A stretch of 22,509 nucleotides of DNA from a virus, in IMG/VR virus record IMGVR_UViG_3300022074_000409, positions 1-22,509 of that record; one strand, 5' to 3'. Each line of letters opens with the position of its first letter. The first letter of the stretch is position 1. The notes beneath the pieces are model-generated. The model was not told the origin of the DNA. It worked only from the letters and a program-made list of their open reading frames with translations, and did no database searches. Made by a program: the position numbers and the translations under genes. This document shows, piece after piece, positions 12,032 to 22,090 of the stretch.

Positions 12032-12233
12032 GTATGATGCACCTTTGAAGATACAATTTATGAAAGGTGTTTCGGATTTTAAGAGAGGTAGGTTAAATAA
12101 TCCCTACAATCTTAACACCATGCAAGCAAGAGAGTGGGAGAGAGGTTTTAATCTTTCCTACTTTCAAAAGTTAGAAAGAGTTAAAAAGGATGAAGCTAGA
12201 AGAAGAGGCGAAAAAATTCATGCAGTTACATAA
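11985..12233 (+). CDS. Ribosome modulation factor-like protein
   Basis: Residues 24-60 of this 82-residue basic protein fit the ribosome modulation factor pattern: G28-x6-G35-R36, then P40-Y41, then R49-x-W51-x2-G54-F55. In E. coli RMF the corresponding order is G, GR, PY, R-x-W, GGW. RMF dimerises 70S ribosomes into inactive 100S particles; what a phage version does is not known to me. It could reprogram translation or bind RNA or DNA. The flanks are Lys/Arg-rich. An AAAGGAG site inside the upstream gene precedes the ATG. It overlaps the upstream gene by 47 bases and the MazG-like gene by 44. The fold is judged from pattern only. Confidence 0.6.
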   Translation: MQRQQKSRKRNPNLSKYDAPLKIQFMKGVSDFKRGRLNNPYNLNTMQAREWERGFNLSYFQKLERVKKDEARRRGEKIHAVT

Positions 12234-12549
12234 TAAGAGTTTGATAAGTGCTAACGAGTATCAAGAGAAGTGTAAGGCTACAGCAATATATCCTAAGAAG
12301 GATGCAATAGCTTACTTATCTCTTGGACTTGTTAGCGAGGCAGGCGAGGTAGCAGGGAAAGTAAAGAAAAACATACGTGATGGTACAGAGTCAAACGTAG
12401 CATCAGAGATAGGTGATGTGCTTTGGTACTGTGCTATGTTAGCAAATGAATTAGATGCAAATTTAGGTAAGATAATGGAAGATAATCTACATAAACTAAG
12501 TAGTAGAAAAGAGAGAGGAACACTCGCAGGTTCAGGTGATAATCGTTAG
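12190..12549 (+). CDS. MazG-like nucleotide pyrophosphohydrolase
   Basis: The 119-residue all-alpha protein has the MazG-type metal-binding signature E50-x2-E53 (LVSEAGEVAGKVKK) and E73-x2-D76 (SEIGDVLWY), as in enzymes that hydrolyse nucleoside triphosphates to monophosphates. Phage MazG has been proposed to clean the nucleotide pool or affect ppGpp signalling, which remains debated. Start is uncertain: ATG 12190 has poor ribosome-site spacing, whereas ATG 12220 (residue 11) has AGAGG at a better distance and would shorten the overlap to 14 bases. It is the last plus-strand gene; its TAG overlaps the stop of the converging minus-strand gene. Confidence 0.87.
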   Translation: MKLEEEAKKFMQLHNKSLISANEYQEKCKATAIYPKKDAIAYLSLGLVSEAGEVAGKVKKNIRDGTESNVASEIGDVLWYCAMLANELDANLGKIMEDNLHKLSSRKERGTLAGSGDNR

Positions 12550-14216
12550 GCTCTTGCCATTAGACCACCACGATTAAATGTTTTAATTTTATCATATACG
12601 TTGTGTGAATTTCCTCTTACAGAGATTGTACCAATAGGTTGACCCAATTCTATTTTACCAACAACAGTTGGTCTTAGTTTTGGTTCATCCTTTTGGTTTG
12701 GATATTTTTTTAGATTTACACCTTTTGTAAAATCTGTTTCTAGCGTATAAAAATGTTTACCCTTGTGTGTAACAGACACTAATGTTCCTATATCTTCCAT
12801 ACCCATCGGAGCTTGTGTCCATTTCCATCCTGCACTTGTCTTGAATAAGTTTGCTTTTATCTGTGAATTACCTTTACCTATAGTTCCAACATTATCTACA
12901 TTATCATCAGAAGCCTTAAAGGATGCTTTTCCATCAGGATTAATTTTTATGTTAGCAGAAGTAACGTTTCTGTCTGTGATAACTTCTCCTGTTGCAGGAT
13001 TTATATAATCACCACCTTTCGGTGCTTCACCTTTTGGGTAAAGTTTTTCAGGTTTAGGAAACACAGAAATAGTATTAGTTTCTCTAGGTATATATCTCTC
13101 TCCACTTGTGGTTGCTTGTTTAACTGCACCACTACCTTCATCAATCTTTCCTATATGTTCAGGAAACACCATAATCTGTTTTGACCTGTCCTTAAAATTA
13201 TCAAACAAAACAGAGTCATAACCTTCATCCTTTATCTTTTGAAAGTTTTCTTTTAGGTAAATTCTATCTTTAGTAGTCTTAACTACGTAAGGGTTTTCAA
13301 GTTTAGATAAATCGAATTTAGCTACTTGTTGTCCTACAGGTATTGGATTACCGTCTATGTCAACACCTTTAAGTAAAGTGCTAGTTGTCACTTTCTGACC
13401 TGTTGGTCTGTAAGAATATAATCCTTGACCACCCTGCTTACCTACTATATCTAACTGATTAATTGCTCTCATATTAGCATACTCAGAAGCAACTTTAGGG
13501 TCGAGGGTAAAATAAAAACCTTCGCCTAAAAATTCGTCTTGCCTTCTTCCAAACTTTATATCAAAGAATGGCTTATCCATGTCTCTACTCTTGGATGTTC
13601 CATGATATCCTGCTATACTAAATTCATCAATTTGTTTAGGTAAGAGTGCTCTTTCAGATTCAGGCAACTCATCAAATAAAGTACGTAGCTTAGACTTTTT
13701 TCGTTGTATTGCAAGAGATGGTTCACGTTTCTTAGTTTGAGCTAATATCACTTCCTTAAAATTATCTTTTTTAAATGCATCACTTTCAGCTAATATAACT
13801 TTAGCTGCCTCATCTTTCTTTCCCTCTTTTATTAGCTGACTTATACCCTTTTGTACTCGCATAGGTCCTGATGTAGCACCACCAACTCCTGCAGTAAGAA
13901 AAAAATTAACTATGTCTCTTCTTAATCTATCATCATCTTGACCTGTAATATAATTTTTAGCTTCATTTATAACTGCTGCTCCACCCTTTATACCTGATTC
14001 AATGGTACGTAATCCTAAATCTAAAGAATCAACTGCACCACCAACAACAGTTTTATTTATACCACCAAATACAGGGTCATCAAATACACCCGGCAAAGCC
14101 TCAAACATAGACTTAGATAAATTGTCAGACTGAAATGGTTCAGTGAAAGCATCAATCAACTCACTACTAGCATTTGACTTGTCTATATCATCTAATATTT
14201 TATCTTCATCTTCCAT
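12546..14216 (-). CDS. Putative ejected virion protein with ADP-ribosyltransferase-like domain
   Basis: The 556-residue protein has three parts. Residues 1-200 are helical and polar, with Gly-rich patches (55-85, 105-118). Residues about 201-357 look like the ADP-ribosyltransferase domain found in phage polyvalent proteins: Y204-H205-G206-T207, G231-x-G233-F-Y235-F-T, A242-x3-Y246-A, and a closing pair of strands YDSVLF...QIMVFPEHI. The expected catalytic Glu position appears to hold Gln347, so activity is uncertain. Residues 370-556 are probably beta-rich and unknown, ending in RGGLM. It is last in the minus-strand operon, one base into the gene for the 1320-residue protein, so I infer that it is packaged and ejected with the DNA. 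Confidence 0.78.
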   Translation of the reverse strand: MEDEDKILDDIDKSNASSELIDAFTEPFQSDNLSKSMFEALPGVFDDPVFGGINKTVVGGAVDSLDLGLRTIESGIKGGAAVINEAKNYITGQDDDRLRRDIVNFFLTAGVGGATSGPMRVQKGISQLIKEGKKDEAAKVILAESDAFKKDNFKEVILAQTKKREPSLAIQRKKSKLRTLFDELPESERALLPKQIDEFSIAGYHGTSKSRDMDKPFFDIKFGRRQDEFLGEGFYFTLDPKVASEYANMRAINQLDIVGKQGGQGLYSYRPTGQKVTTSTLLKGVDIDGNPIPVGQQVAKFDLSKLENPYVVKTTKDRIYLKENFQKIKDEGYDSVLFDNFKDRSKQIMVFPEHIGKIDEGSGAVKQATTSGERYIPRETNTISVFPKPEKLYPKGEAPKGGDYINPATGEVITDRNVTSANIKINPDGKASFKASDDNVDNVGTIGKGNSQIKANLFKTSAGWKWTQAPMGMEDIGTLVSVTHKGKHFYTLETDFTKGVNLKKYPNQKDEPKLRPTVVGKIELGQPIGTISVRGNSHNVYDKIKTFNRGGLMARA

Positions 14217-17200
14217 TATTTTAACCTATCTTTTTTACCTAGACCTTTAGCATAGTCTGTGTATTTAACAAATACATTTTCTCTATTTGCCCAAGATTTA
14301 TCAGTTAAAGGTCCTTTAACTATGAAATAATTTCTATCCATGTATATATTTTTTGGTTCAATCAAGTTTTTATTTTTATCATAAACAAAATCATTTGTCT
14401 GTCTGTAATGCTCATTTGCTGCTACAGTTTTCTGACCTGATAGACTTCTCCAATCTTTTACTACCTTACTTGTGTAAGGAAAACCTGCTTCAACTTCTAT
14501 TGTCTCAAGTTTAGATGCAGCATAAGCTCTAGCCTCTTGTACATATAATCTAGCTATTTTCATAATAGCAGTAGTTCTTTGTGCAGGAGCAACTTGAACA
14601 GGAGCAGTCTGACCAAAAAAAGATTCAGCTACTAGTTTTTCACCACGTTTTTCAGCAACTTCTTTTGCGTCTTTTATAATAGTTTGATAAGGTTTACCTC
14701 TTATATATGTAGCCATTCTTTTAGCTAAATTAAATTCACTACCATCTTTACCTAAAAGGTCACGTGCAGAAACTTCTATCTGTGGATTTTTGTAATCTCT
14801 TTTATAAAATTCTCTATCAGGAATATTTAAAATTGTAAGTTCATTATCAAATATAGTCTTAGCTTCTCCTAATGTAAAACCTGAAAGTTTGTAGATGGGA
14901 GATACAGTTCTTCTAGGTCCTTGTCTTGGGTCAACAGCTTGTTTATCTACAGTTGGAATATTAGTAAATAATTTATCTGCCCTTAATTTACCTTCACCAA
15001 AAAACTCAAACTCTTGGACTGCTCCTTTAACATCTACTGATTTAAAATCAGGTGCACCTCTAAGAGCACTTGCTAAAATAGTATCTAGTATGTTTGTTTG
15101 TCCTGTTTTACTTTCAGGAACTTTCCTCATATCTTTATCAGATATACCATAAAAGTTTTTCACAATTTGTGTGGGTATCATAAATGCCTGACCAACATTA
15201 CCAATAAATTCATCTATCATTGGTCTATCCATCTTTTCTTTATTTTCACTAAAAGTACTAACAAAGTCTTCTAAAAACAATAAACCCATACCTCGTCTAA
15301 CTGTAACACCTATGAGTGCTTGTGATGCATCTTTTGAGTATTGTTCATACCCTAACCCTGTATCTGATGGTAATGTATCTGTTTGATATCTATACATTAT
15401 ATCAGCAGCTAATATCCAAGGTGCTAATGCACCATATATAGGTCTACCATCTATAGGTTTTCCTGTTTCACTTTTAATTTCCCACCAATGATTAGTGTTC
15501 CCTTGTCTATATCGCCACTCTAAAGCAGCTAAAAACAAACCTGTTCCCATAGTTCCTCTAGCTAAGTCTTTAGAAAAAGTTGCTTTGTCTGTTTTAAATA
15601 ATTTTCCTACAGTTGTATAACCTTCTTTAGTTAATTTTCTACTACCTATGTTTTCTATCTTTACCATATTTATAAGAGGAACATGATTATAGATAGTTTT
15701 TAGGTGGTTCGCTGTATATCTAGGAAATGGTAAAAATGTTGATATAACAAAAGGTAAATTTTTGTGACCTGATTGTAACATCTTATTGAATCTGTTTAAG
15801 TATCCATCGCTTTTAAAGGTTGCTTGATACACAAATTCATAAGTATCTTGAATAGCTGTTTTCAATACCTCATCAGGTATTTCAGATAATTTACCTGTCT
15901 GAGTAAGTGTAAAAAAGTCATGTACTCTTTCACCCTTAACAAGATTACCAATCTTATTATCTTTTAATGCTTGTTCAAAACCTGCAGGAGATAAAGTAGA
16001 TATAAACTCTCTTGTTGCTTCCATGTTTGGAAAATCTTTTTGTATCTTCTGTGCTAACAATGTTTCTAAATCTAACGTTGTCATTTTTACAGCATTTTCA
16101 GGGTCTAAATTATTTATACCTCTACGCAAAAAAGTCGTTAAGGCTGCCTGCTTAAAATAGTTATCAGACAATGTATTGAAATAATTCATCTTCGTTCCAA
16201 GCCAAGCCATCTTACTTGTTGTAAATTTAGTTACTGCTCCATCATCTGCCATTCTATTATTTAGGTCTGCTGCCTCTCTAAATAAGTTAGACATTTCTTC
16301 AGGGAAATCTTCTTTAAGTATATCTCTAAATATTCTAGCTTCTGCAGGTCTAACCATATATTTAGCCATTGCTAGTGTATCCTTACTAAAAGGATTTTTT
16401 AATTGTAATGCCTGATTTAGTGCATATACACCTGTATCTACACCCACCCTAAATAAACCGTTTATATTATTTCTTATAGTTGTTTGTGGCTGAGATGTCA
16501 TCATACCTAACTTGGCACGGTCAGCATTTTTAAAGAAATTTCTAAGTAATGATATTCCTTTATTATTTTCTTTTGCGACATTATCAGCAACATCTTTAGT
16601 TATACCACCTGTTAAATTAGCTTCATTCAAGGCATCTACTTTATTTAACAGTTCATCAAATTGTATTTTCTCTTTTGATTTTTTTCCAAACTTTTTTATT
16701 AATTTTTTAGGTTGTTTAAAATCTGTTAATGCTTTACTTAGTTGTCCTTTAGATTGTAATATTCTAGCAGCATCGGATACATCACTTAAAAACACCATAC
16801 CAAATTGGTCTGTTGTTAAGTTGTGGTCTCTCAATATTTTTTTAATCTCTGCTGTTTCTAATAATTTACGTGTACCATCTTTTTGTAATACACCCTCTGT
16901 GATAGCTCTATGAAGACCTGCTGTTACTCTTTCTGTAGGACCTAGCTTAATTAACTTTTCCATTCTTAGCGTAGCTGCCACTAAATTATTATGAAACTCT
17001 ACAGGAAGTCCTGCTATAAAATTTTTAGGGTCTGCAGTTAAATCCTTACGTAACTCTCTACCCTTAGCTGTTAACTCTGGATTTAATCTTTCTAACTTTT
17101 TTGATATTCTCTGTATATCTTCTAAACCAACTGTCTTTAGAAACTCATCTGTTTTTAGTTTAGCAGATTTTTTGACTTCTTCCTTAGAAAGTTTAAATGC

Positions 17201-18178
17201 CTCTTTTAATTCTATTGCTTTAGCTGTAGACCTTGTTTCTAATAAAGAACTAAATCCACCAAATAAAGAGCCACCTGCACCTTGAATACCTGTTTCTAAA
17301 CCTACAACTCCGGGTCTATACTCCTCTTTCATAGTCATACTTCTTAGCTTTTCTTTACCTGAACTTTGTAAATATCCAACACCAAATTCAACAGGAGCTA
17401 CCTTAGCTGCACCTTTTAAAAATTCTTTAATATATGTTTTAATACCTTGCTTACTAGACTGAGACATTACACCTGTGCCTAGTTTACCTTTAGTAGCTAA
17501 CATTGCTGAGAATATGTTAGAAGGAGATGTGAAAGTAGCACCCATATAATCTTTTACTTTTCTAAAAGATAAATCTTCTCCTTTATATTTTTCCCATACA
17601 TCTAAAAGTCTACCATATCTATTAACTCTTGCGTTTTTAACATCATTGTCATCTGAGTCATATAAATAATCAAAGTCTCTAGCTAGTGTAAACTCATTAC
17701 CTGTATCATAATATCTCTGTCTTTCAGTCCACGCTTCCCATATCTTATCTGGTGTATCTAACTCATCATCATCAATATTATGACGTGCCTTTAATAAGGT
17801 ACGAGCATCAGCTAGAAAAGAAGCATCTTTCAGTAAAGATTCTTTAGTGATATTCTTTCTGTCTAATTTATTATACGATTTAAGAGTCAAACCTTCAGGT
17901 GTTGTGTAAGGTCTGTTTTCAATATCTTTTATAGTTTTTACAAAGGGAGTTCCGGGGGATGTAACATCTACTTCTGTAAAAATGTTACTTATGGTAGGTT
18001 TCTTTTGTTTTACTTCAGTTGGTTCAACTTTAAAAAGTTCTTGAGTTTGTTTACTTAAATCACTGTCAGTATTAAATATAGTATTAAACTCATTCAATAA
18101 TAGGTTGTCATCTAAAGAAGTTTCTTCAGAAGTTGTATCAGCATCTTCTTTTAAAAGGGAATCTAAATATCCTGACAT
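14216..18178 (-). CDS. Very large putative internal virion / DNA ejection protein
   Basis: I prefer ATG 18178 (1320 residues) to the in-frame GTG at 18190: it lies one base after the upstream stop and has GGTGG eight bases ahead. The sequence is mostly charged alpha helix. The N-terminal 100 residues look disordered and acidic. Hydrophobic stretches cluster around residues 808-840, 872-890, 913-930 and 953-972. Size, helical content, internal membrane-active segments and place among virion genes fit the large core proteins of podoviruses (T7 gp16 role) that form a channel for DNA entry. I see no lysozyme, transglycosylase or RNA polymerase motif. The stop overlaps the ADP-ribosyltransferase-like gene by one base. 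Confidence 0.82.
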   Translation of the reverse strand: MSGYLDSLLKEDADTTSEETSLDDNLLLNEFNTIFNTDSDLSKQTQELFKVEPTEVKQKKPTISNIFTEVDVTSPGTPFVKTIKDIENRPYTTPEGLTLKSYNKLDRKNITKESLLKDASFLADARTLLKARHNIDDDELDTPDKIWEAWTERQRYYDTGNEFTLARDFDYLYDSDDNDVKNARVNRYGRLLDVWEKYKGEDLSFRKVKDYMGATFTSPSNIFSAMLATKGKLGTGVMSQSSKQGIKTYIKEFLKGAAKVAPVEFGVGYLQSSGKEKLRSMTMKEEYRPGVVGLETGIQGAGGSLFGGFSSLLETRSTAKAIELKEAFKLSKEEVKKSAKLKTDEFLKTVGLEDIQRISKKLERLNPELTAKGRELRKDLTADPKNFIAGLPVEFHNNLVAATLRMEKLIKLGPTERVTAGLHRAITEGVLQKDGTRKLLETAEIKKILRDHNLTTDQFGMVFLSDVSDAARILQSKGQLSKALTDFKQPKKLIKKFGKKSKEKIQFDELLNKVDALNEANLTGGITKDVADNVAKENNKGISLLRNFFKNADRAKLGMMTSQPQTTIRNNINGLFRVGVDTGVYALNQALQLKNPFSKDTLAMAKYMVRPAEARIFRDILKEDFPEEMSNLFREAADLNNRMADDGAVTKFTTSKMAWLGTKMNYFNTLSDNYFKQAALTTFLRRGINNLDPENAVKMTTLDLETLLAQKIQKDFPNMEATREFISTLSPAGFEQALKDNKIGNLVKGERVHDFFTLTQTGKLSEIPDEVLKTAIQDTYEFVYQATFKSDGYLNRFNKMLQSGHKNLPFVISTFLPFPRYTANHLKTIYNHVPLINMVKIENIGSRKLTKEGYTTVGKLFKTDKATFSKDLARGTMGTGLFLAALEWRYRQGNTNHWWEIKSETGKPIDGRPIYGALAPWILAADIMYRYQTDTLPSDTGLGYEQYSKDASQALIGVTVRRGMGLLFLEDFVSTFSENKEKMDRPMIDEFIGNVGQAFMIPTQIVKNFYGISDKDMRKVPESKTGQTNILDTILASALRGAPDFKSVDVKGAVQEFEFFGEGKLRADKLFTNIPTVDKQAVDPRQGPRRTVSPIYKLSGFTLGEAKTIFDNELTILNIPDREFYKRDYKNPQIEVSARDLLGKDGSEFNLAKRMATYIRGKPYQTIIKDAKEVAEKRGEKLVAESFFGQTAPVQVAPAQRTTAIMKIARLYVQEARAYAASKLETIEVEAGFPYTSKVVKDWRSLSGQKTVAANEHYRQTNDFVYDKNKNLIEPKNIYMDRNYFIVKGPLTDKSWANRENVFVKYTDYAKGLGKKDRLK

Positions 18179-18179
18179 A

Positions 18180-19385
18180 TTAATTGCCACCAGTTATATA
18201 TGGTTTTATCCTAATTCCAAACACCTTAAGAATATTTCTTATTTCTTTTTCAGAATAATTTAAAGCTGTCAGTCTTTCTCTTAATTCACCTTCTACCTCA
18301 TTGTGAAAGTCTGTTCCTATATTTTCATTTTTAGAAAATTTATTTGAATATCTATTTTCATTATACGTAAGTAAACTCATTAAGGAAACTTTATCTGAAG
18401 CGTTACCTTTTAGTAAAGACATATAACTATTTTGAGCTAACGCATCAGGATTTTGAAGTGCAGCATTATTTAAAATAGATTTAATTTTATTTTGATTGCC
18501 TGCAATATCTTCCATCTTGTATCTTGAATTAATATTATTTGCTGCGATAGACCTAGCTCTATTTTGTGCCTCAATCAAACTTAATCCTTCATCTATTTGA
18601 AGTTTTCTTACTATTTCATTATATTGAGGAATCAATAAGTTAACATAAGTTGTAGCTAATGTTAAATCTGCTTCTTTACCTGACTCAGGTCTATATATAC
18701 CCCTAACATCCTCAACACCTTTACCACCAAGACGAGCAAAAATATCTTTAGTAAAAGCTCTTCTAAAGTTATCTACATCTTTTGCATCCTCAGCAAATAC
18801 TTTTATCTTACCTTTTCTACTCAAACCTTGTTGAAAAGATGATAAATCACGTCTAGTAACATCAGGTCTTGTAGCACCTGTTCCAAGTTTAACCCTACTT
18901 GCTAATTCATCTTTAGGGTCAAAACCAAATAGCACATCCACAGCAGTTCGTGGAACTAAACCCGAATAATCCATTTCTGCTTCTTTATATGCAGGCACTA
19001 GAGAGTTTATTAATTCAGCTTCGGTTAAATCAGTCTTACCTTCAAATTCTTTTATAGCACTAAAAAATTTAGCTCTATTATCTTTACCATCTATAGTAGC
19101 TAACTTACCTACTATTTCTTTTCTCTGTGGTTCAGGCAATGCCATGAGAGCAGCCACATTAGGTAAATTATACTGTGACAACAAAGGTCTTATTTCCTTT
19201 GTCATATTTTCTATATCAGTATCATATTTTTTTCTAGCGGCTAATCGAGCTCTAATAGCAGCAGAGGACGCAGCCTTAATAGCCTCTTGTTGTCTATCTA
19301 GCTGTCTATCAATTTCTTTAGATGCACCTTCAGCAACACCACCTAAGAAAGTTAAAGCATCACCACTTAATCCTAAGAAAGCCAT
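18180..19385 (-). CDS. Putative internal virion protein (401 aa)
   Basis: I do not recognise this family. The 401-residue product starts with a Gly/Leu-rich hydrophobic patch (FLGLSGDALTFLGGVAEGA) that could touch a membrane or pack in a core, followed by a long Arg/Ala/Gln-rich helix (residues 22-60) likely to form a coiled coil, then a mostly helical mixed body. The position between small structural-type genes and the 1320-residue protein suggests a second internal core or ejection protein. AGGAG about six bases upstream, inside the preceding gene's last codons, supports the ATG at 19385. Confidence 0.75.
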   Translation of the reverse strand: MAFLGLSGDALTFLGGVAEGASKEIDRQLDRQQEAIKAASSAAIRARLAARKKYDTDIENMTKEIRPLLSQYNLPNVAALMALPEPQRKEIVGKLATIDGKDNRAKFFSAIKEFEGKTDLTEAELINSLVPAYKEAEMDYSGLVPRTAVDVLFGFDPKDELASRVKLGTGATRPDVTRRDLSSFQQGLSRKGKIKVFAEDAKDVDNFRRAFTKDIFARLGGKGVEDVRGIYRPESGKEADLTLATTYVNLLIPQYNEIVRKLQIDEGLSLIEAQNRARSIAANNINSRYKMEDIAGNQNKIKSILNNAALQNPDALAQNSYMSLLKGNASDKVSLMSLLTYNENRYSNKFSKNENIGTDFHNEVEGELRERLTALNYSEKEIRNILKVFGIRIKPYITGGN

Positions 19386-19386
19386 T

Positions 19387-19890
19387 TTATCTCCTGCCCA
19401 TTAATCCTCTTGGCATTTCTGCCAACTCTTCTTCTGTTTCAATTATTTGTTCGTCAGTTTCTTCTCTATCTTCAGATAATTCTTCTCTAGCCTTACTAAT
19501 TCCAGCAAGTATTCTTGAATCTTTTACTTCAGCTTCTATATCTCTTTCCATACCTGTTTGATACTTTATACCTTCAGCATCAGCAATAAGCATTATCATT
19601 TCCATGATAACAGGTAGTATCAAAACACCTACATCAATACTATGTCTACCTTCCATAACACCTGCTAACTGTATTGTATTAGCTAATGTTGTTACAGGAA
19701 CATCAGACTGTAATATATTTACTATCTGTTCTGTTAAAGACTCATCCTGCATACGTTCTATATAATGTGCAATAGCCTCTTGTACACTCGCTTGCTGTGG
19801 TGGATTTTGCCACGGTCTAGCTCCTACTTCGTGTGTTAGAGCCATACCTGCTATAGGTGCTTCTAATGGAAGTTCTTCACGTATCGGCAT
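19387..19890 (-). CDS. Conserved phage structural-region protein with acidic C terminus
   Basis: The 167-residue product resembles a protein type I recall near the virion genes of marine phages: a Pro-rich N terminus (EAPIAGMALTHEVGARPWQNPPQQ), a helical part, and a hydrophobic core HSIDVGVLILPVIMEMIMLIADAE (about residues 83-106) that may be membrane-associated or buried, then a very acidic Glu-rich helix (about 117-160) and a basic end. Its function is unknown; a scaffold or ejection accessory role is possible. GGAGAAG lies before the ATG. The start overlaps the upstream gene by 14 bases. Confidence 0.75.
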   Translation of the reverse strand: MPIREELPLEAPIAGMALTHEVGARPWQNPPQQASVQEAIAHYIERMQDESLTEQIVNILQSDVPVTTLANTIQLAGVMEGRHSIDVGVLILPVIMEMIMLIADAEGIKYQTGMERDIEAEVKDSRILAGISKAREELSEDREETDEQIIETEEELAEMPRGLMGRR

Positions 19891-20128: not shown

Positions 20129-22090
20129 TTAGAAAGGTTTTAGTTTACCTATATATGCAGAACCTAATTGTCCTATAATATTTCCTATAGCACTAGTGCT
20201 ACTAGACCTTTGTTTAGCTTCAGCTAATCTTTCAGATGCCTCAGCATTAATATTTGCTACTGCAACTTCTACTAGTCTATCCTGCTCACTCTCAGCACTC
20301 TTCCATGCCCACTCCATAGTGTCGGCATAATACTGCCACAGATTAGCATATTGTGTGTTAGATACATCTAATGCTGCTTTAGCATTTAATTCATTAGCTC
20401 TATTTAAAGCTGCTGTATCTGCTGTAGCTATTTCTCTTCGCCACACTGCATTATTCTGTGCTATAGCTAATTGATTCTGTGCATTGAATTGGTCACGTTG
20501 ATTAGCTACTTCTGCGTTAAATCTTGATAATGTATTTAACTCTCCTGCATTAAACTGATTCTGTGCATTTGATTGTGTTGAATTAAATTGAGATATTTGA
20601 TTAGAGAGATTAGCCATAAACTGGTCAACTTGATTCTGTGATGTAGCATTAAATTGTCTTGATGCATTTTCAGCAGCTTGGTCAGTTAGTAATGATTGAT
20701 TTATAGCTTGAGCATTAAATATGGCAGTCTGTTGTTCATTACTTAAATTAGCCATGTCTAACTGTAAAAAGTTACTTGCGTTTTGCACAGCAGTTTGTTG
20801 TCTAGCATTTAAGTTTGCAGTATCTAACTGTGATAATGCTGATGCTTCAGCCATAACTACAGCTTGTCTATTTGATAAATTATTAAGATTGACTGTATTT
20901 GCTGTTCTACTATTCTCTAACGCTATCTGCTGTTCTGCAGTAAAGTTTCTGTTTGCTATATCAGCTATACGTGCAGAGTTTTGAACCCTTGCTTGAAACC
21001 CTTGGTCAAACTCTTGTCCAATGAACTGTGCTCTTTGTTGAGCAGCTAACATAGCTCTTTGTTGTCTGTTGGATAAATTCTGCTGTTCAAATGTAGCAAC
21101 AGTTCTAGCATCTGCCTGTGCAATAGGTAAAGCTGATTCCATTGCCGCCTGTACAAGTGCCTGTCCTGCAATACTAGATGCACCTAAACCTCTTTGTTGC
21201 ATTACTGCTTGTACACCTCTGATTGCTCCTGCTGCCCATGCAGGTGGATTAGTGGCATCAAAGTTAGCAGTTAGTCCTGCTAGTTGTCCTGCTACAGTAG
21301 CTTGGTCAGTAGGTGTTGCTGTGGCAGCCTCTACTTGTTCTGTAAATGCTTTTGCTTTTTCTGCATCAGCAGTAGTATCTATTAACTCACCTGCCTGTAT
21401 CTGTCTTTGTACTGGATTATCTAATTTAATAGAATTACCTTGTGCCGCAGTAACATTTGCAACACTTGTAGCTGTTTGTTGTGCTGCTACAACTTTAGCT
21501 CTTGGGTCAGCTAAATCAGTTTGAGCTGCTTGGTTAGCCTCTATAGCATTTTGAACTTCAGGACTTGCTTGAGCTGCCTCCATAGATGTTGAGGTAACAG
21601 CCACAGGAGCACCTGCTTGCATTGTTTCTGCACCATATGTGGGTGCTATAGGGTCTGCTCCTAACACTCCTGTAGTTGGAGTAATAAGTTGTTCCTGCAT
21701 TACAGGTGTGAGTTGAGGCTGTGTAACTGCACCCACAGGTAATGCACCTGTCTGTGCTAATGTTGTGCTTGCCTCTGCTATAGTTTTACCTTCATCAGCA
21801 GTACCAAAAGCAGGAACTTGTCCTTCACCTTCTCCTAATGTGGGTACATATGCTTGTCCTGCAGGAGTAAATGATGGTGTAGACTGTGTAGGAGCACCAC
21901 CTGTTTGCAGTTTAACTACAGACCCACCTTTAGCCATATCTTGTGCTCTTTGACGATACACAATCATCTCACGTTCTTTATCAGGGTTTTGTTTTAGGTA
22001 ATTATCAAAGTTTTCCATACTACCTGCATAACCCATACGATTGGCTATCTTTTGTAATCCTTGTGGCTTAAAGCCTCTGAACATTGCCAT
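20129..22090 (-). CDS. Repeat-rich putative virion protein with hendecad coiled-coil region
   Basis: The 653-residue protein has four zones. Residues 1-65 form a charged N domain that contains MGYAGSMENFDNYLKQNP and a MAKGGSVVKLQTGG linker, a type I associate with virion-region proteins of marine phages. Residues 66-330 are a low-complexity Ala/Pro/Thr/Gln stretch. Residues about 335-545 are Asn/Gln/Ala-rich 11-residue repeats, most regular at 403-468 and 479-544. Residues 546-653 are a helical C domain with a Trp-rich YANLWQYYADTMEWAWKSAE segment and a Gly/Ile-rich end. A long helical rod is likely, as in core, tail-interior or fibre-type proteins. I favour an internal virion component by position. 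The start overlaps the upstream stop by one base. Confidence 0.8.
   Translation of the reverse strand: MAMFRGFKPQGLQKIANRMGYAGSMENFDNYLKQNPDKEREMIVYRQRAQDMAKGGSVVKLQTGGAPTQSTPSFTPAGQAYVPTLGEGEGQVPAFGTADEGKTIAEASTTLAQTGALPVGAVTQPQLTPVMQEQLITPTTGVLGADPIAPTYGAETMQAGAPVAVTSTSMEAAQASPEVQNAIEANQAAQTDLADPRAKVVAAQQTATSVANVTAAQGNSIKLDNPVQRQIQAGELIDTTADAEKAKAFTEQVEAATATPTDQATVAGQLAGLTANFDATNPPAWAAGAIRGVQAVMQQRGLGASSIAGQALVQAAMESALPIAQADARTVATFEQQNLSNRQQRAMLAAQQRAQFIGQEFDQGFQARVQNSARIADIANRNFTAEQQIALENSRTANTVNLNNLSNRQAVVMAEASALSQLDTANLNARQQTAVQNASNFLQLDMANLSNEQQTAIFNAQAINQSLLTDQAAENASRQFNATSQNQVDQFMANLSNQISQFNSTQSNAQNQFNAGELNTLSRFNAEVANQRDQFNAQNQLAIAQNNAVWRREIATADTAALNRANELNAKAALDVSNTQYANLWQYYADTMEWAWKSAESEQDRLVEVAVANINAEASERLAEAKQRSSSTSAIGNIIGQLGSAYIGKLKPF
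20459..20656 (-). repeat. Six tandem 11-codon repeats (QFN units)
   Basis: Residues 479-544 of the encoded protein divide exactly into six 11-residue units, five opening with Q-F and one with R-F, most followed by N-[AS]: QFNATSQNQVD, QFMANLSNQIS, QFNSTQSNAQN, QFNAGELNTLS, RFNAEVANQRD and QFNAQNQLAIA. The 33-base period is clear in protein and partly worn in DNA. Eleven-residue periodicity is typical of nearly straight or right-handed coiled coils. Confidence 0.85.
20687..20884 (-). repeat. Three tandem 22-codon repeats (two hendecads each)
   Basis: Residues 403-468 form three 22-residue units starting NNLSNRQ, ANLNARQQ and ANLSNEQQ, with a shared later Leu/Asn/Gln-rich half. The 22-residue length is twice the 11-residue unit found just downstream, so both blocks probably come from one ancestral hendecad. 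A related start (QNLSNRQQ) occurs at residues 337-344. Confidence 0.8.

What the first reader, a model, noticed from the sequence alone, without database searches (positions are those of the whole stretch)
12546..14216. ADP-ribosyltransferase-like domain in a probable ejected virion protein
Residues 201-357 show HGT, GxGFYF, AxxxYA and a final pair of strands like the ART domain of polyvalent proteins (Iyer and Aravind's class, injected with phage or plasmid DNA). The gene is coupled to a 1320-residue probable ejection protein. If packaged, the protein could modify host targets in the first minutes of infection. The expected catalytic Glu seems to be Gln347, which either marks an altered or dead enzyme or means that my alignment is shifted. 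The C-terminal 190 residues may be a further undescribed domain.
Basis: partly seen in the sequence, partly recalled or inferred. Interest (0 to 1): 0.78.

Follow-up and report, generated by a model that had tools for sequence, protein, structure and literature searches.

The report
Swappable NAD-enzyme payload in phage gene
A marine phage carries, at the end of its structural gene block, a protein with an NAD-using (ADP-ribosyltransferase-type) domain with an unusual glutamine at the active site, and in related phages the same gene position carries other domains instead, which suggests an exchangeable cargo that may be delivered into the host with the phage DNA.

Summary
The gene 12546-14216(-), 556 aa, has an ART-fold domain at residues ~201-358. 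PF18760 ART-PolyVal matches at E 3.7e-6 in the whole protein (below the curated cut-off) and at 33.2 bits (cut-off 31.2) for the domain alone; 20 of 20 relatives match. A profile search of the PDB and a Foldseek search both return H-Y-E ARTs of the diphtheria/exotoxin-A group first, each with weak single scores. H205, Y235, Y246 and Q347 are invariant in the relatives. Q347 does sit in the catalytic acid column and is conserved, so it is a fixed trait of this branch, not decay.

First, the gene is modular: in related phages the same slot, after the 1324-aa gene, keeps the N-terminal ~169 residues but carries ART plus C-domain, C-domain alone, or a different payload. The ART also sits between portal and capsid genes in about 25 other contigs. 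Second, three different protein families of these phages share a C-terminal tail, GGL(M/A)xR.

The C-terminal domain is undescribed. Virion packaging and injection remain inferred. This is a new variant of the polyvalent-protein kind; target and activity are unknown.

The parts
12546..14216 (-). 556-aa modular protein gene, last gene of the late block
   Evidence: present at 99% identity in IMG/VR contig L001
13710..14216 (-). N-terminal carrier region, residues 1-169, kept in related phages whatever payload follows
   Evidence: 54-71% identity in L108, L112, L109 and 36% in L042; helical, low-confidence model
13143..13616 (-). ART-fold domain, residues 201-358
   Evidence: PF18760; PDB profile and Foldseek hits to exotoxin-A/diphtheria-type ARTs
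13602..13604 (-). H205, predicted NAD-binding His of strand 1
   Evidence: 32 of 32 rows
13512..13514 (-). Y235, predicted NAD-binding Tyr of strand 2
   Evidence: 32 of 32 rows
13479..13481 (-). Y246, second aromatic residue of the predicted nicotinamide pocket
   Evidence: 32 of 32 rows
13176..13178 (-). Q347, third active-site position, Gln instead of Asp/Glu
   Evidence: 29 of 29 rows; Glu in RPP1, Gln in Pseudoalteromonas phage Y3
12576..13070 (-). undescribed all-beta C-terminal domain, residues ~383-547
   Evidence: found in 20 other IMG/VR loci, A2, model pLDDT 76-93 at 451-550 except about 61-62 in two blocks, distant copy in CRP-13 gp55
12549..12572 (-). C-terminal tail RGGLMARA shared with other payload-slot proteins
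14216..18190 (-). 1324-aa late gene upstream and coupled; possible ejection protein by position only
   Evidence: 24% identity to CRP-2 gp44, last late gene there; no family or PDB match
19387..19890 (-). 167-aa late protein ending RGLMGRR, same type of tail
   Evidence: CRP-2 gp46 and CRP-13 gp37 end RGLMARG
12190..12549 (+). 119-aa convergent gene marking the far edge of the slot
   Evidence: kept beyond the payload gene in L037, L040, L042, L054, L108, L109, L112

Best explanation
The gene encodes a late, probably virion-packaged cargo protein in three parts: an N-terminal helical carrier region (1-169), an exchangeable NAD-binding ART-fold enzyme of the H-Y-[EDQ] clade with a fixed Gln at the third active-site position (201-358), and an undescribed beta domain ending in a GGLMAR tail. 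Most likely it is made with the structural proteins, packaged with or beside the 1324-aa coupled protein, and enters the host with the DNA, where the ART domain binds NAD+ and either ADP-ribosylates a host macromolecule (about 60%) or hydrolyses NAD(P)+ (about 40%). Shown: the ART-like domain, conservation of the active-site residues, modular exchange at the slot, late-block position. Inferred: packaging, ejection, catalysis, target.
For: ART fold: PF18760 in 20 of 20 relatives; the A1 profile against the PDB returns only exotoxin A catalytic domains among all 11 hits with E<=1, aligned over YHGT...GFY..DP..A..YA; Foldseek of the ART model gives 13 H-Y-E ARTs as its first 13 PDB hits; the viral library lists an iridovirus PARP-like protein and an annotated PolyVal ART, both weak. 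Function kept: H, Y, Y, Q invariant, dN/dS about 0.08 to L002/L003 (dS saturated) and 0.15 for the C-domain to L039. Virion context: relatives of the ART lie in proteins between a portal (phrog_332, E 1e-79) and scaffold/major head protein (phrog_267) in nearly all contigs that cover the region; the window gene is on the late strand, overlapping the previous late gene. Cargo logic: same slot, same N-terminus, different payloads. Literature: polyvalent ARTs predicted to be packaged and injected (PMC5512222); about 44% of phage ARTs lie in head-packaging contexts (PMC9503650).
Against: No direct virion evidence. Individual Foldseek and PDB-profile scores are weak (best E 0.07 and 0.045, TM about 0.3); the model could not be inspected for pocket geometry. 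The whole protein misses Pfam's cut-off by 3 bits. Gln conservation is partly ascertained, because some searches used patterns containing DRSKQIM. The neighbouring 'ejection' protein has no known homologue. Several relatives in the same slot lack the ART, so it is dispensable for the basic role of the gene.
Confidence: 0.58

Rival explanations
1. NAD(P)+ glycohydrolase payload: the Gln at the third position makes it an NAD-depleting enzyme rather than a transferase, acting early against host metabolism or as a superinfection weapon.
For: TNT (Gln822), Tse6 (Gln413) and Tne2 (Gln387) have Gln at the place of the ART glutamate and are NAD(P)+ hydrolases (PMC6398120). Q347 is invariant.
Against: No Pfam hit to the TNT family; the branch keeps HGT and GxGFYF of the transferase-type H-Y clade and matches exotoxin-A-type ARTs. 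NAD depletion would also harm phage replication.
Confidence: 0.27
2. Pseudoenzyme: an ART-fold domain that lost catalysis and serves as a binding or structural module of the virion.
For: The catalytic acid is missing; crAss-like cr130_1 has Val in that column, so the position is loose in the wider family.
Against: His, both Tyr and Gln are all invariant in the rows that cover them under strong purifying selection; pseudoenzymes usually lose pocket residues together.
Confidence: 0.15
3. Non-injected late effector: made late in the infected cell and used there (for example to stop superinfection or tune lysis) without entering the virion.
For: Only gene order supports packaging; the slot is the end of the late block, where non-structural late genes can also lie.
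Against: The same domain is fused into large proteins between portal and scaffold genes in most relatives, and the payload-slot proteins share a C-terminal tail.
Confidence: 0.2
4. The conserved 3' end and N-terminus are only recombination anchors in a mosaic region, without a carrier or packaging role.
For: Different cassettes have different ages: C-domain dS 0.34 to L039 while ART dS is about 1.5-1.8 to its nearest kin.
Against: The tail is conserved as protein in three families at different loci, including cultured CRP-2 and CRP-13, where no shared DNA flank is expected.
Confidence: 0.25

Closest known systems
ART-PolyVal, PF18760 (ART domains of polyvalent proteins, Tox-ART-HYD2 clade; prototype Roseovarius Plymouth podovirus 1 vRNAP CBX87992.1)
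   Same: Sequence profile match; H in strand 1, Y in strand 2; fused to other domains in phage late proteins
   Different: Gln, not Asp/Glu, at the third position; no match in 50,697 isolate phage genomes at tblastn
Phage T4 Alt
   Same: Model for a head-packaged, injected ART
   Different: R-S-E active site; unrelated branch
Diphtheria/exotoxin-A group ART domains
   Same: H-Y layout YHGT...GFY..DP..A..YA, first Foldseek hits
   Different: They have Glu at the third position and act on eukaryotic eEF2
TNT/Tse6/Tne2 NAD(P)+ glycohydrolases
   Same: Gln at the place of the ART glutamate (PMC6398120)
   Different: No sequence match; other pocket motifs
CRP-13 gp55 (Roseobacter phage, hypothetical protein between portal and coat genes)
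   Same: Distant copy of the C-terminal beta domain
   Different: No ART domain; different locus

Membership tests
ART-PolyVal (PF18760) | Profile score at or above the curated cut-off of 31.2 bits | tested here: met
   Domain alone 33.2 bits; whole protein 28.2, below the cut-off; near-identical G001 over the cut-off, 33.5 with its neighbours in the frame
ART-PolyVal (PF18760) | His in strand 1 and Tyr in strand 2 | tested here: met
   H205 and Y235 invariant; strands 202-207 and 234-237 in the model
ART-PolyVal / HYD2 as defined in PMC5512222 | Asp in strand 5 | tested here: not met
   Gln347 in all rows that reach it. The prototype itself aligns Glu here and phage Y3 Gln. I therefore call this a Gln-type variant, not a canonical H-Y-D member
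H-Y-[EDQ] ART clade | His, Tyr and Glu/Asp/Gln at the three positions (PMC9503650) | tested here: met
   H205, Y235, Q347
H-Y-[EDQ] ART clade | ART split beta-sheet with NAD pocket | tested here: inconclusive
   Predicted strands in the expected order, pLDDT 78.6; Foldseek E 0.07 and TM about 0.3; coordinates could not be inspected
Polyvalent proteins | Two or more domains of disparate activity in one polypeptide, mobile-element encoded | tested here: inconclusive
   Three parts, but only the ART has a predicted activity. The L003 relative adds LPD23, a HEIQH zincin-like motif and an L5 gp82-like domain
Polyvalent proteins | Packaged and injected with the DNA | not testable with these tools
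   Needs virion proteomics
T4 Alt / R-S-E ARTs | Arg-Ser-Glu active site | tested here: not met
   H-Y-Q pattern; no Alt/VIP2 Pfam hit
MuF-ART fusions | MuF domain in the same protein | tested here: not met
   No MuF hit in the window protein or in the portal-slot relatives scanned
TNT NADases (PF14021) | Profile match | tested here: not met
   No hit up to E 1
NAD+ hydrolase or transferase | Enzyme activity | not testable with these tools
   Needs a biochemical assay

The most novel reading that the evidence does not exclude
Marine phages of this group run a cargo-loading scheme: a constant N-terminal carrier and/or a short C-terminal GGL(M/A)xR tag loads exchangeable payloads (H-Y-Q ART, zincin-like peptidase, L5 gp82-like domain, the new beta domain) into the virion at two loci, so that the delivered effector can be swapped by recombination while the loading signal stays the same.
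Probability: 0.3. Interest if true: 0.78.

Novelty: new variant of a known kind. Interest (0 to 1): 0.55.

Why it matters
Virion-delivered enzymes act before any phage gene is expressed, and few are known outside T4, N4 and P1. This locus shows the same gene position with different cargoes in closely related phages, which gives natural constant and variable parts to test what loads a protein into a virion. It also offers a branch of ART-PolyVal with a fixed Gln, useful for asking which H-Y ARTs are transferases and which are NADases. The shared C-terminal tail is a short, directly testable packaging-signal candidate.

Tried and rejected
No relatives of P0001 in isolate phage genomes, and none of the ART domain of L032. 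Genome-contig scans with the ART and C-domain alignments found none, so there is no host or prophage assignment. The one plasmid-collection hit (Acetoanaerobium, E 0.03) lies in a frame without ART motifs and is a chance match. PF18760 could not be surveyed across bacterial genomes, because no genome centre was available; only five further ART-PolyVal sequences were compared (one of them, L105, without a readable third motif). Rejected: that Q347 is an alignment shift (prototype alignment); that the gene is decaying; that the N-terminus is related to the N-termini of the portal-slot proteins (hhalign P 0.44). The 1324-aa protein could not be tied to any known ejection protein. MAFFT alignment A3 misplaced L042 and was not used. 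Promoter and terminator scans were at chance level.

Full report
What is there. The reported ORF is real: 12546-14216 on the minus strand, 556 aa, with its ATG overlapping the stop of the 1324-aa gene by one base. It is the last gene of a late block that runs against an early block with helicase, DNA polymerase and ribonucleotide reductase genes. The gene order is that of HMO-2011-type marine podoviruses: the 1324-aa protein matches Roseobacter phage CRP-2 gp44 at 24% identity, the last late gene there, followed in CRP-2 by early-strand genes including the ribonucleotide reductase. CRP-2 and CRP-13 have no gene in the position of the reported ORF. A 99% identical copy is in IMG/VR contig L001.

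ART domain. Pfam PF18760 (ART-PolyVal) matches residues 204-358 at E 3.7e-6 (28.2 bits, cut-off 31.2); the excised domain reaches 33.2 bits and all 20 aligned relatives match the model. The relatives' own profile, run against all PDB sequences, gives 11 hits with E<=1, and all are exotoxin A chains, aligned over YHGT...GFY..DP..A..YA (best E 0.045). AlphaFold2 gives pLDDT 78.6 for the domain, and the first 13 Foldseek hits in the PDB are exotoxin A, diphtheria and cholix ART domains (E 0.07 to 0.74, TM about 0.3). Each score is weak alone; two different methods giving the same family without guidance is the argument. In the viral library the full model lists an iridovirus PARP-like protein (E 0.19) and an annotated PolyVal ART (E 1.9), also weak.

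The glutamine. The prototype polyvalent ART (PMC5512222; fetched) reads GYDG...DGEIMVV where the window reads GYDS...SKQIMVF. Two other N4-like phages have Glu, Pseudoalteromonas phage Y3 has Gln, and a crAss-like phage has Val there. Within the branch H205, Y235 and Y246 are invariant in all 32 rows that cover them, and Q347 in all 29. Part of that is ascertainment, because search patterns included DRSKQIM, but five of the rows differ at residue 346 and so were not found through that pattern. PMC9503650 names the clade H-Y-[EDQ]; PMC5512222 describes polyvalent ARTs as H-Y-D. TNT, Tse6 and Tne2 have Gln at the matching place and hydrolyse NAD(P)+ (PMC6398120). Gln therefore points to a fixed, possibly altered activity rather than to decay. 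dN/dS against L002 and L003 is about 0.08, with saturated dS.

Modular gene. Six related contigs with the same flanks (1324-aa homologue before, 119-aa convergent gene after) were compared, plus one with the downstream flank only. L108 and L112 keep the N-terminal 169 residues at 70-71% identity, but then carry a ~400-aa payload ending in an L5 gp82-like domain (PF25735, just below cut-off), with no ART and no C-domain. L109 (54%) and L042 (36%) keep the N-terminus and go straight to the C-domain. L040 and L054 have other N-termini with the C-domain, L054 with a HEVQH zincin-like motif before it. L037 is cut at its 5' end and has an ART end followed by the L5 gp82-like domain. The ART profile finds nothing significant in the ART-less proteins. 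The window gene is thus a mosaic: its C-domain is 91% identical (dS 0.34) to that of L039, while its ART is closest, at 79-81%, to L002/L003 with dS about 1.7.

Second locus. In nearly all other contigs that cover the region the ART sits in a large protein between the portal and scaffold/capsid genes; portal and major head protein were confirmed by PHROGs. In L003 that protein also has LPD23, a HEIQH motif and an L5 gp82-like domain, the make-up of a polyvalent protein. L041 has the same protein with the ART region replaced by the C-domain.

C-terminal domain. Residues ~383-547 form a conserved domain (A2, 14 rows, mean column identity 71%), predicted all-beta with pLDDT up to 93. No Pfam, PHROG or NCBIfam family matches, and PDB profile hits are at noise. 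A distant copy is in CRP-13 gp55, between portal and coat genes (HMM E 2e-8; genome search E 3.7e-7). The top viral Foldseek hit (E 4.5e-10) has the same length, 1208 aa, and is probably that protein.

Tail. Payload-slot proteins at both loci and the 167-aa late protein family end in a GL(M/A)xR-type tail: 27 of 392 ORF C-termini against 0.29 expected from internal 12-mers. All eight proteins at the post-1324 slot have it, behind two unrelated domains. The pattern was chosen after seeing it and the ORFs are related, so the number is not a p-value; the sharing among three different families is the point.

Mechanism. Most likely a virion cargo protein whose ART domain acts on NAD+ in the newly infected cell. 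The ART call I hold at about 0.93, catalysis at about 0.7, packaging at about 0.65, transferase over NADase about 60:40. Nothing here measures packaging or activity.

Novelty. Injected ART-bearing polyvalent proteins are a published prediction (PMC5512222, PMC9503650). New here are the Gln-type branch with no relative detected in isolate genomes, the swap of payloads at a fixed slot, the beta domain and the shared tail.

Noticed in passing
12549-12572 (-), 19387-19890 (-), and L003, L005, L014-L016, L025, L108, L112, L007, L008: Shared C-terminal tail GGL(M/A)xR or RGLM(A/G)R in three different protein families; candidate packaging or processing signal.
   Followed up: partly
L108 8408-10186 and L112 224-1987: Alternative payload of about 400 aa at the same slot; only its end matches PF25735 / phrog_586, the rest has no family.
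   Followed up: partly
L054 6432-8534; L002, L003, L041 and L048 portal-slot proteins: HEVQH / HEIQH zincin-like motifs in the payload proteins, without a Pfam match.
   Followed up: no
L012 7764-13145 and L052 6816-11297: Portal-slot proteins with lysozyme (PF00959 in L012; PF18013 plus LysM in L052), so this slot also carries cell-wall enzymes.
   Followed up: no
L032-L034, 286-aa ORFs; L011, 227 aa: Short proteins made almost only of the ART domain with a small N-terminal part, without any other payload domain.
   Followed up: no
20129-22090 (-): 653-aa Ala/Gln/Asn-rich late protein, 70-87% identical in related phages, no family match.
   Followed up: no
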